NCBI GenBank assembly: GCA_017640785.1
Contig: JAEPPZ010000012.1
Span: forward strand, 42,811-106,810
Length of the DNA stretch: 64,000 bases
Origin: Balneola sp.
Lineage (GTDB): Bacteria; Bacteroidota; Rhodothermia; Balneolales; Balneolaceae
Reading direction: 5' to 3'
In this document: one piece after another, positions 34,024 to 39,236 of the stretch
How the letters are laid out: each line of letters opens with the position of its first letter
How positions within the stretch are numbered: position 1 is the first letter of the stretch
Translations under genes and position numbers: made by a program
The notes under the pieces: generated by a model
Database searches by the model: none
Told to the model about the DNA's origin: nothing
Seen by the model: only the letters and a program-made list of their open reading frames with translations

Positions 34024-34911
34024 TTAAAGAGAACCTTTAGAGCTCGGTATTTGGTTTTTAATTCGCTCGTTTTGTTCAACAGCCGCCTTCAGAGTTCGGG
34101 CAAAACCTTTAAAACAAGCTTCAATTTTGTGGTGATCATTATCACCGGTACAACTAACATGAAGAGTTGCTTTCAAGTTCATTGCAAGGCTATAAAAAAA
34201 GTGTTCTAACATTTCGGTTGGGAAATCTCCAACATATTCGCGCTTCACCGGCACATCAAAAACCAAATAAGGCCTGCCTGAAAGATCGATGGCTACCGTA
34301 GCTTGAGCTTCGTCCATAGCCAATACAAAACCGTAACGTTCTATTCCTTTTTTATCTCCTAGAGCCTGAGTAATTGCATCACCAAGAGCAATGGCGACAT
34401 CTTCTATAGTGTGATGTTCATCAATTTCCAGATCGCCCTTACAGTAAATATCCAGATCTACCAGTCCATGACGTGCTATCTGTTCCAGCATGTGATCGAA
34501 AAACTTTAGTCCTGTATCAATGTTTGATTTTCCGGAGCCATCCAGATTCAGATCTACCTTTATTTGGGTTTCTTTTGTTTCTCTTTTGATGGATGCCGTT
34601 CTATTCGGAGACAAAAGTGCAGATACAATTTGTTGCCAATCTGATGAGCTTTTTACTTCTGTGTTTGCCTCATCTCTTAAAACTAATTCAGATTCTTTAA
34701 GACTAATGGAATAATCAGCTTTTTCGATTTCAGAAAAACCAATTCCTTCCTGCTCTAGCAAATTCTTTTGATCTTCTGTGATCTTTGATCCTGAAACTGA
34801 GATCAAGAACCCTGCATCAATTAAGTTCTTTAATGAGGAAATTGCTTGCTCACGGAATAGGAATTGTTTATCAACAGGCAAAAGCGTATTACTATCTATG
34901 GATACAGTCAT
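34024..34911 (-). CDS. hisB: Imidazoleglycerol-phosphate dehydratase with vestigial N-terminal HAD-like domain
   Basis: A 295-residue protein. Residues about 108-295 are a complete dehydratase with both Mn-binding repeats: [41 protein letters not shown] and [19 protein letters not shown]. The first 100 residues are too long for a plain HisB and too short for the 165-residue histidinol-phosphatase half of bifunctional HisB. They retain a HAD-like order: VSIDSNTLL in place of DxDxT (second Asp is Asn), then [18 protein letters not shown] in place of the TNQ strand. No zinc loop follows. I read it as a decayed phosphatase domain. Confidence 0.9.
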
Positions 34912-38046: not shown

Positions 38047-38928
38047 TTATAGGATCATGCTTTCAATTGGCAACATCACAATATCAGTAGCACCAACTTC
38101 TTTTAATTCTTCCATTACCGTCCAGAATTTTGTGATCGGAATTACGGTGTGTATGGCAACCATATCACTTTCGGCTAAAGGTACAATGGTCGGACTTTTC
38201 ATGGATGGAATAATTGCTTTCACTTTTTCGATGGAATCGGTAGGAGCGTTCATCATAATGTAACGACTCTTTTTTGCTTGCTGATAACCATCGATTCTGA
38301 CTAAAAATTTCTCGATCAGTTCTTTCTTTCCTTCCGAAAGTTCCTGATTTGTTTGAATCAGTTCTGTTTCAGATTCCATAATGGTAATCAATTCTTCCAG
38401 GCCGTTTGCACGAAGTGTTCCGCCTGTTGATACCAAGTCAGCAATAGCATCGGCAACACCTAATTGAGGAGTAATTTCTACAGCACCTGAAATCTCAACC
38501 AGTTTTACGTTGATGTTTTGCTCTTCAAAATATTTTTGAGTGATAAAAGGATAGCTGGTGGCTATGGTTTTTCCTTCAAAATCGGAGGCAGATTTAAGTG
38601 GTCCATTTTTTGGAGCAGCAATAGATAATCTGCAACGTCCGTAATTCAATCCTCTCAGAACGGTTACATCCGAATTTTTCTCGGCACGTTCATTGGCACC
38701 CACAAAACCAAGATCACAAATCCCATCCTGTACATATTCGGGAATATCATCATCACGAAGGAGCAGGAGCTCAACATCGAAATTGCGGGTTTTAACCATC
38801 AGGTTTCGTTTATAGTTGTCAAACTCCACGCCAATGCCTTGTAACAGGCTCACGGTTTTATCAGTTAGCCGGCCACTTTTTTGAATAGCAATGCGTAGAG
38901 AAGTCGAAGAATCTTTCGATCGGGTCAT
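38047..38928 (-). CDS. hisG: ATP phosphoribosyltransferase (long form)
   Basis: A 293-residue HisG-L enzyme, the first committed and feedback-controlled step of histidine synthesis. RIAIQKSGRLTDKTVSLLQG, ICDLGFVGAN, KTIATSYPFITQKYF and ADAIADLVSTGGTLRANGL form the catalytic PRPP-binding part. The C-terminal ACT-like domain (about 220-293, SRYIMMNAPTDSIEKVKAII...DIVMLPIESMIL) marks the allosteric hexameric long form, so no HisZ is needed. A His-rich leader ORF and promoter lie directly upstream. Confidence 0.95.
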   Translation of the reverse strand: MTRSKDSSTSLRIAIQKSGRLTDKTVSLLQGIGVEFDNYKRNLMVKTRNFDVELLLLRDDDIPEYVQDGICDLGFVGANERAEKNSDVTVLRGLNYGRCRLSIAAPKNGPLKSASDFEGKTIATSYPFITQKYFEEQNINVKLVEISGAVEITPQLGVADAIADLVSTGGTLRANGLEELITIMESETELIQTNQELSEGKKELIEKFLVRIDGYQQAKKSRYIMMNAPTDSIEKVKAIIPSMKSPTIVPLAESDMVAIHTVIPITKFWTVMEELKEVGATDIVMLPIESMIL

Positions 38929-38977: not shown

Positions 38978-39000
38978 AAAAACAGACGCTATTTACGCGT
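38978..39000 (-). terminator. Weak candidate attenuator hairpin of the his leader
   Basis: On the minus strand ACGC-GTAAATA-GCGT (four pairs) overlaps the hisL stop codon and is followed by CTGTTTTT. A second possible hairpin, GGTGTCC with GGACATC, lies inside the His-codon run. The stem is short for an intrinsic terminator, so the mechanism downstream of the leader remains open. Confidence 0.35.
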
Positions 39001-39070
39001 GATGATGTCCTTGATGAAGATGATGGACACCATGATGGAGGTGGGTAGTATGTAGATTTTTTCTGTTCAC
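38993..39070 (-). CDS. hisL: Histidine operon leader peptide
   Basis: A 25-codon minus-strand ORF from GTG (39068-39070) to TAA, ending 64 bases before hisG. The peptide begins MNRKNLHTTHLHHG and ends VHHLHQGHHHA. Ten of 25 residues are His, nine of them after residue 9, as expected of a his attenuation leader where ribosome stalling reports histidyl-tRNA supply. An in-frame stop (TGA) two codons upstream of the GTG rules out an earlier start. The start lies only four bases past a strong -7 box, so the mRNA would be leaderless or nearly so. Confidence 0.85.
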   Translation of the reverse strand: MNRKNLHTTHLHHGVHHLHQGHHHA

Positions 39071-39074
39071 GGCT

Positions 39075-39105
39075 CAAAGATAGTGATTAGTTGGTTATGG
39101 ACAAA
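39075..39105 (-). promoter_or_regulatory. Promoter of the his leader/hisG operon
   Basis: On the minus strand, TTTG (39102-39105), a 19-base spacer and TATCTTTG (39075-39082) match the Bacteroidetes housekeeping promoter TTTG-N19-TAnnTTTG exactly. Transcription is expected to start within about 2-6 bases of the -7 box, at or beside the hisL GTG. Confidence 0.75.
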
Positions 39106-39236
39106 TAGCGATTCTTAAAAAATCGCTAAAATCATAAAACCCGTTTTCAAATATTAGAGTTTCCTTAAATTGGAAATGATTTTGAAGCCCTCTAACGATA
39201 TCTTTAACTTCTCTTAAAAATAACATAACAGATTAC

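What the first reader, a model, noticed from the sequence alone, without database searches (positions are those of the whole stretch)
38978..39105. Near-leaderless histidine-operon leader ORF with 10 His codons
Seen in sequence: 25 codons (GTG to TAA, 39070-38993) encode a peptide with ten His, ending HHLHQGHHHA, 64 bases upstream of hisG. An exact TTTG-N19-TAnnTTTG promoter ends four bases before the GTG. Known: His-rich leader peptides control his operons by ribosome-stalling attenuation. Unusual: the start codon would lie at or next to the transcript 5' end, so the leader ribosome must load on a leaderless mRNA. The terminator candidate is a weak 4-bp hairpin over the stop codon.
Basis: partly seen in the sequence, partly recalled or inferred. 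Interest (0 to 1): 0.75.

Follow-up and report, generated by a model that had tools for sequence, protein, structure and literature searches.

The report
Leaderless histidine sensor lacking a terminator
In a Balneola-like bacterium, a 25-codon reading frame with ten histidine codons, whose start codon is predicted to be the very first letters of the messenger RNA, sits just before the histidine-making genes; relatives keep it, but it lacks the strong transcription-stop hairpin seen in sister groups, so a ribosome stalling there likely controls the genes by another route, probably the Rho protein.

Summary
In detail: GTG 39070 to TAA 38993 (minus strand) gives 25 codons, ten His, 64 nt before hisG in a Balneola-like genome, with a TAnnTTTG box ending 4 nt before the GTG. 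All 8 same-genus genomes and 31 of 34 same-family loci keep a His-rich ORF there. In 62 of 80 leaders the best box lies 4-5 nt before the start codon; published Flavobacterium start mapping then predicts transcription from the GTG itself, or one base before an ATG. The proposed terminator is not supported: his leaders of this family carry only weak hairpins (own -3.8 kcal/mol; 3 of 69 reach -12), whereas 26 of 26 trp leaders and 14 of 15 candidate his leaders outside the phylum carry strong ones. The hairpin over the stop codon is conserved, and in GTG-start Balneola/Gracilimonas-type leaders the 5' end, start codon included, pairs with sequence after the stop codon. Best reading: a predicted leaderless, ribosome-stalling His sensor whose off-switch is probably Rho. 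Unexplained: CATA at +19 in his leaders, echoed in trp leaders. New variant of a known kind; nothing was measured.

The parts
39075..39082 (-). -7 promoter box TATCTTTG, ending 4 nt before the start codon
   Evidence: spacing conserved in relatives
39102..39105 (-). TTTG 19 nt upstream of the -7 box (possible -33 element; no support beyond the match)
38993..39070 (-). leader ORF, GTG to TAA, 25 codons, 10 His; transcript predicted to begin at 39070
39049..39052 (-). CATA at +19..+22 from the start codon, conserved in his leaders and echoed in trp leaders
39062..39070 (-). P1 5' strand GUGAACAGA (start codon and codons 2-3)
39002..39033 (-). P2 hairpin inside the His run (arms 39033-39025 and 39010-39002)
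38986..39000 (-). P3 hairpin ACGC-GUAAAUA-GCGU with the stop codon in its loop
38975..38986 (-). P1 3' strand UCUGUUUUUCAC after the stop codon
38929..38977 (-). G-poor, C/U-rich spacer up to hisG; proposed Rho loading region (inferred)
   Evidence: composition
38047..38928 (-). hisG, first gene of the regulated cluster hisG-D-C-B-H-A (to 32684)

Best explanation
The feature is a 25-codon, ten-histidine leader reading frame in front of the his operon that is predicted to start at the first base of its mRNA, would sense charged tRNA-His by ribosome stalling, and likely switches the operon off through Rho, because it lacks a strong intrinsic terminator. Shown by sequence comparison: the ORF and its conservation, the fixed box-to-start spacing, the lack of a strong terminator, the conserved stop-codon hairpin P3 and, in GTG-start Balneola/Gracilimonas-type leaders, pairing of the 5' end with sequence after the stop codon (P1). 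Inferred steps: (1) a ribosome loads on the 5'-terminal GUG as it emerges from the polymerase. (2) With enough histidine it runs to the stop codon and leaves; P1, P2 and P3 fold and shut the start codon, so no second ribosome covers the leader. (3) The leader, rich in CAU/CAC codons, and the G-poor spacer stay bare, Rho loads and stops transcription before or inside hisG. (4) When charged tRNA-His is scarce the ribosome stays on the His run; its footprint covers the P1 5' strand and the His run, Rho access is delayed, and the polymerase reaches hisG, which is then translated.
For: Conserved His-rich ORF: 8 of 8 same-genus and 31 of 34 same-family loci. Box-to-start spacing 4-5 nt in 62 of 80 leaders; in F. 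psychrophilum the box sits at -12 to -5 (PMC9723704 passages). P1 by swap test in 16 GTG-start group A leaders: -7.54 against -6.13 kcal/mol, p 2.5e-4; P3 p 4e-4 (A, 19) and 1.1e-3 (R, 34). No strong terminator in his leaders of the family although the same genomes and their order relatives use strong ones before trpE (26 of 26). Spacer G-poor: group A 2.2% G and 22.6% C, against 12.3% G and 16.8% C in 32 control upstream regions. A Rho gene over the curated cut-off is present. Structure around the start codon is reported to depress leaderless translation (PMC9031893 passages), which fits P1 as a lock.
Against: No transcription start, ribosome stalling or Rho dependence was measured. P1 is not supported in group R (p 0.46), in group F by the swap test (p 0.23) or in the three ATG-start members of group A (p 1.0), so it cannot be the core of the mechanism family-wide. 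The G-poor spacer may only serve to avoid pairing with the C-rich leader; over 140 nt the C excess is matched or exceeded by about 3% of minus-strand windows (1989 of 63860). The window's own fold is only mildly better than shuffles (z -1.30, 23 of 200 shuffles as good). Three of 69 his leaders reach -12 kcal/mol.
Confidence: 0.5

Rival explanations
1. Classical attenuation with a weak, unusual terminator: P3 plus the following U tract terminates, helped by P1 zipping the A-rich 5' end onto the U tract; a ribosome stalled near codon 7 covers the P1 5' strand and lets transcription through.
For: P3 is conserved. A U tract follows P3 in the window (ACGCGUAAAUAGCGU then CTGTTTTTC). In several group A leaders the P1 3' strand is itself U-rich, e.g. 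TTTTTCAC. The first His codon is codon 7 in 52 of 69 leaders, where a stalled ribosome would cover the 5' end.
Against: P3 with U tract is weak: -3.8 kcal/mol here; 28 of 69 leaders have no candidate and the best is -10.6, against -15.8 to -21.8 in 26 trp leaders. In L009 and L011 no U run follows P3 closely although P1 is perfect.
Confidence: 0.22
2. Translational control: the fold of the leader, set by the ribosome's position, governs translation of hisG or stability of its mRNA rather than transcription, as described for mycobacterial leaderless poly-Cys ORFs.
For: No terminator. The mycobacterial leaders are described as acting by (translation) attenuation (passages).
Against: In the window's fold and in the group A folds seen, the spacer before hisG is mostly unpaired and no helix covers the hisG start (the output was cut for parts of groups F and R).
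Confidence: 0.18
3. The ORF is not a sensor but a ribosome loader: its translation merely feeds or protects hisG (reinitiation), and the His codons are incidental.
For: Reinitiation at leader peptides has been proposed to raise expression of downstream genes (PMC4833913, search listing with the start of its abstract only).
Against: His runs are kept across three diverged leader groups before his operons while Trp runs stand before trpE in 26 of 27 loci: the codons match the product of each operon.
Confidence: 0.05

Closest known systems
Leaderless poly-cysteine short ORFs of mycobacteria (Canestrari et al. 2020; paper not held, seen only through citing passages)
   Same: Leaderless short ORF with a run of the codons of the operon's end product; no conserved terminator hairpin in mycobacterial cys leaders (PMC1262725 passages)
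   Different: His instead of Cys; unrelated phylum with another promoter type; start codon paired with sequence after the stop codon in some members; strong intrinsic terminators are used by the trp leaders of the same genomes
His operon attenuator of enteric bacteria (Rfam His_leader, recalled)
   Same: His-rich leader peptide before hisG
   Different: No Rfam match; no strong intrinsic terminator; predicted leaderless
trpL of Sinorhizobium meliloti, a leader whose transcript starts with its AUG (PMC7298713 passages)
   Same: Leaderless leader-peptide ORF of an attenuator
   Different: Trp, alphaproteobacterial; transcription attenuation there yields a discrete small RNA
tna operon of E. coli (TnaC), Rho-dependent attenuation (PMC1262725 passages)
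   Same: Proposed: ribosome occupancy of the leader governs Rho access
   Different: tnaC responds to free Trp (PMC8429421, search listing); here scarcity of charged tRNA-His is proposed
trp leaders of Balneolales found here (L219-L245)
   Same: Box 4-7 nt before the start codon in 20 of 27 loci and an (C/A)ATA-like motif at +19
   Different: Trp codons and a strong intrinsic terminator in 26 of 26

Membership tests
Leader-peptide attenuator of the classical his/trp type | Short ORF rich in codons of the operon's product directly upstream | tested here: met
   10 His of 25 codons, 64 nt before hisG; conserved
Leader-peptide attenuator of the classical his/trp type | Strong intrinsic terminator between leader and first gene | tested here: not met
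   -3.8 kcal/mol; 3 of 69 family leaders reach -12; positive control 26 of 26 trp leaders
Leader-peptide attenuator of the classical his/trp type | Mutually exclusive alternative RNA structures | tested here: inconclusive
   P1 and P3 supported by swap tests in some groups; no antiterminator defined
Leader-peptide attenuator of the classical his/trp type | Expression rises on starvation for the amino acid | not testable with these tools
   needs expression data
Rfam His_leader | Match to a covariance model of the library | tested here: not met
   no Rfam match for the window region (only a chance snoRNA-family row at E 4.3) or for 8 related loci at gathering thresholds
Leaderless attenuator ORF (mycobacterial poly-Cys kind) | Start codon at the transcript 5' end | tested here: inconclusive
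   predicted from box spacing and published box position; no 5' end mapped
Leaderless attenuator ORF (mycobacterial poly-Cys kind) | Run of cysteine codons, cysteine-responsive | tested here: not met
   His codons, no Cys in the window's leader; works alike at most, not a member
Rho-dependent attenuator (tnaC kind) | Rho encoded in the genome | tested here: met
   two rho-family matches, one over the curated cut-off
Rho-dependent attenuator (tnaC kind) | C-rich, G-poor, unstructured loading region after the leader | tested here: inconclusive
   C at least 4 times G in 52 of 69 spacers, 3 of 32 controls; about 3% of minus-strand windows have as large a C excess over 140 nt
Rho-dependent attenuator (tnaC kind) | Termination depends on Rho | not testable with these tools
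   needs bicyclomycin or Rho depletion with 3'-end mapping

The most novel reading that the evidence does not exclude
Balneolaceae run a terminator-free, leaderless his attenuator: one ribosome loads on the bare 5' end, afterwards the transcript's own 5' end locks the start codon shut (P1), and Rho reads out how long that single ribosome lingered on the C-rich His codons. His and trp leaders share a dedicated 5' module, a 5'-terminal start codon plus CATA at about +19, for loading ribosomes on attenuators in bacteria without Shine-Dalgarno initiation.
Probability: 0.3. Interest if true: 0.75.

Novelty: new variant of a known kind. Interest (0 to 1): 0.52.

Why it matters
It offers a matched pair in one genome: two leaders with the same 5' design, trp with a strong intrinsic terminator and his without. 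That would make it testable how an attenuator works without a terminator, whether Rho can replace the hairpin, and how ribosomes load in time on mRNAs with no 5' UTR in bacteria related to groups that lack Shine-Dalgarno sequences (so stated for flavobacteria in PMC9723704 passages; for Balneola itself not tested). Leaderless mRNAs are rare in those relatives (5.5% and, for 5' UTRs under 10 nt, about 3.7%), so conserved leaderless attenuators are unexpected there.

Tried and rejected
The TTTG-N19-TAnnTTTG pair as promoter evidence: rejected, not enriched in the genome. P3 as a normal terminator: rejected. P1 as a family-wide element: rejected; supported only in GTG-start group A (an earlier mixed test of 35 leaders gave the same picture). 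RNAalifold on MAFFT alignments of groups A and R found P2-like and start-codon pairs but not P1 or P3, probably because the alignments misplace them; swap tests were used instead. Leaders for other amino acids: of 20 leuA/cimA-like loci one (L259) has a Leu-rich ORF (MLLLLFLL...) behind a box-like sequence, not followed up; the other 19 gave nothing that looked convincing. Of 14 pheS loci one loose Phe-containing ORF (L341). Homoserine dehydrogenase loci (25 scanned) mostly did not reach the start of the fused gene, so no conclusion. Pattern TTTN-N4-5-RTG-N15-CATA in the own genome: 58 matches against 43 for the reversed pattern; they include the his and trp leaders; 30 of the 58 places were fetched, and none of the other short ORFs behind a TA-box there looked like a leader by its peptide; downstream genes were not checked. 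A TTTG-RTG-TGGTGG pattern search missed the trp leader because its box ends in TTTT. Rfam: nothing.

Rows dropped: of 188 loci 169 had a hisG anchor and 117 remained after removing identical upstreams. I sorted 69 into groups A (23), F (12) and R (34) by eye. The other 48 (listed) are near-copies of the window (L003, L006), truncated, of other leader types, without a leader, or outside the family. In one search four near-duplicates of group A (L005, L011, L062, L142) were left out. The 80 leaders are the 69 plus 11 chosen others (L017, L033-L036, L039, L043, L049, L052, L072, L073). The swap-test p values treat species as independent, which they are not fully.

Full report
What is in the window. 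On the minus strand a hisG-hisD-hisC-hisB-hisH-hisA cluster runs from 38928 to 32684. Upstream, GTG 39070 to TAA 38993 encodes VNRKNLHTTHLHHGVHHLHQGHHHA, ten His in 25 codons, 64 nt before hisG. TATCTTTG ends at 39075, four bases before the GTG. The named genomes with the nearest HisG (99% identity) are Balneola or Balneolaceae assemblies.

Is it conserved? Yes, in the family. Of 58 relatives 56 have a hisG match. A His-rich ORF (at least 4 His in 16 residues, a loose criterion) lies upstream in all 8 same-genus genomes and in 31 of 34 same-family loci: 30 of 30 in L002-L031, and L055. L056 and L057 have none and L054 is doubtful; these three have a divergent hisG of 42-46% identity. Of the 22 loci from other families of the order, 12 show such an ORF (L042 doubtful) and 10 do not; all eight loci of family f3 are among the 10, so that family lacks the leader. 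Outside codon 7 the His codons vary between CAT (362) and CAC (154) in 69 leaders while the residue is kept.

Leaderless? In 80 leaders the best TAnnTTTG match within 60 nt lies 4 or 5 nt before the start codon in 62; in 54 it has at least 5 of 6 consensus bases, as against 2 of 50 window ORFs. The 18 exceptions are listed in that call; L017, L072 and L073, for instance, have the box 9-10 nt away. In Flavobacterium psychrophilum the TAnnTTTG box sits at -12 to -5 and leaderless mRNAs make up 5.5% (PMC9723704, passages). In Bacteroides thetaiotaomicron about 3.7% of 5' UTRs are under 10 nt (PMC7366714, passages). By that ruler +1 is the fifth base after the box: the G of GTG at spacing 4, or the base before ATG at spacing 5, which is a purine in 15 of 17 such ATG leaders. 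In 13 GTG leaders whose best box scores at spacing 5, the fifth base is a purine in only 3; there +1 may be the G one base on. This is a prediction; no 5' end was mapped.

Terminator. A search for a hairpin followed by a U tract gave -3.8 kcal/mol for the window; 28 of 69 his leaders had no candidate and the best was -10.6. With hairpins up to 55 nt and the ORF included, 3 of 69 reached -12 (L025, L080, L014). The same kind of search gave -15.8 to -21.8 for 26 of 26 trp leaders of these genomes and their order relatives, and -12.7 or stronger for 14 of 15 candidate his leaders outside the phylum (23 loci looked at, 8 without a candidate ORF; L127 with -6.0 is the exception). In other families of the order some loci, such as L045 and L053, have strong terminators and others do not. 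So this family seems to do without the his terminator; whether it was lost was not tested on a tree.

RNA structure. Three helices recur by eye and in single-sequence folds (the output was cut for parts of F and R). P3 has the stop codon in its loop. Duplex energy of true arm pairs beats arms swapped between species: group A (19 leaders) -6.08 against -5.19, p 4e-4; group R (34) -5.12 against -4.40, p 1.1e-3. P1 pairs the 5' end, start codon included, with sequence after the stop codon: for 16 GTG-start group A leaders -7.54 against -6.13, p 2.5e-4. It fails in R (p 0.46), in F (p 0.23, although RNAalifold shows a GAUGC:GCAUC or GCAUU pairing there with little variation) and in the three ATG-start members of A (p 1.0). 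Examples are GUGAAUUC/GAAUUCAC in L009 and L011, GUGAAAG/CUUUCAC in L015 and ACUUAGA/UCUAAGU in L013. P2 is a hairpin within the His run. The window's own fold is only mildly better than shuffles (z -1.30).

Spacer. From 15 nt after the stop codon to hisG, group A averages 2.2% G and 22.6% C (group F 7.4% and 26.6%, group R 5.5% and 25.7%); 32 control upstream regions of the window average 12.3% G and 16.8% C. C is at least four times G in 52 of 69 his spacers and in 3 of 32 controls. This fits a Rho loading region, and equally a need to avoid pairing with the C-rich leader. Over 140 nt from the GTG the C excess is equalled or exceeded in 1989 of 63860 minus-strand windows. The genome has two Rho-family matches, one over the curated cut-off.

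A shared 5' module. Counted from the start codon, positions 19-22 of 69 his leaders read C .88, A .97, T .97, A .99. Where codon 7 is His it is CAT in 59 of 60 and the next base is A in 60 of 60; after other His codons it is A in 34 of 516. None of 58 window ORFs has CATA there. Trp leaders, found in 26 of 27 trpE loci, have A in 25 of 26 at position 20 and in 23 of 26 at position 22, with C (16) or A (8) at 19 and T (19) at 21, and in 20 of 27 loci a box 4-7 nt before the start codon. Of 14 his leaders outside the phylum, the five Bacteroidota-type ones have CATA at +16 or +18; most of the others have none near. It is open whether the motif is anchored to the start codon or to the transcription start, and its role is unknown. 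CA repeats after the start codon are reported to help leaderless translation (PMC9031893, passages).

Mechanism. I commit to a ribosome-stalling His sensor with Rho as the likely off-switch, as set out in Best explanation. Shutting of the start codon by P1 resembles what I recall for the E. coli trp leader (recalled, no call). Polarity follows from occupancy: a stalled ribosome covers the His run and the P1 5' strand. Rivals are a weak P3/P1 terminator and translational control. Nothing here was measured.

Known or new? Leaderless attenuator ORFs are known: mycobacterial poly-Cys ORFs (citing passages) and S. meliloti trpL (passages). For mycobacterial cys leaders, absence of conserved terminators and a possible role of Rho were noted in 2005 (PMC1262725, passages). 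A 2010 survey of premature terminators says that it misses Rho-dependent cases and knew one such attenuator (PMC2965389, passages). Signs of leader-peptide attenuation before amino-acid operons were noted in F. psychrophilum. The searches listed no paper on Balneolota his leaders; most subscription papers are not in that library. Hence: a new variant of a known kind.

Noticed in passing
window 39049-39052 and the same place in 69 his leaders (groups A, F, R): A CATA tetranucleotide at +19..+22 from the start codon is more conserved than the surrounding codons and recurs, less strictly, in trp leaders. Its function is unexplained.
   Followed up: partly
L243 (own genome, G000:C15 near 50076, minus strand): The trp operon of the same genome has a leader MLKKQLHNTWWWPNAYISSGIVA with a box 5 nt before the ATG and a strong terminator (-16.6 kcal/mol).
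   Followed up: yes
L048 and L050 (same order, family f4): Upstream of hisG a short ORF in the leader position, with a box-like sequence just before its ATG, has only 3 and 2 His (ending ..CNHHACHSLSF and ..CNHHP), as if the His run were decaying.
   Followed up: no
L032, L037, L038, L040, L041, L044, L046, L047 (family f3): All eight loci of this family of the order have hisG without a His-rich ORF upstream by the scan used.
   Followed up: no
L020, L021, L075, L077, L150, L151, L153-L156, L160, L162 (group F): Fodinibius-type leaders have fewer His (4-6), pair the 5' GAUGC with GCAUC/GCAUU next to the stop codon, and carry a further hairpin (GUAGC..GCUAC type) without a clear U tract.
   Followed up: partly
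L122, L123, L130, L133, L136: Bacteroidota his leaders (e.g. MRNYTHNHHHHFPSQG) have the box 7-10 nt before the ATG, so 5' UTRs of only a few bases are predicted, and do have strong terminators.
   Followed up: partly
L259 (same order, family f2): A Leu-rich ORF MLLLLFLLIYTNQ... behind a box-like TAAATTCCGCG lies 229 nt upstream of a leuA-like gene; a possible further leaderless leader.
   Followed up: no
window 34024-34911 (-): The hisB product has the IGPD domain at residues 133-274; its first 132 residues have no Pfam match.
   Followed up: no
window 39107-39127 (-): A perfect 7-base inverted repeat AGCGATT..AATCGCT just upstream of the TTTG; only partly kept in the nearest relatives and absent in L004.
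   Followed up: no
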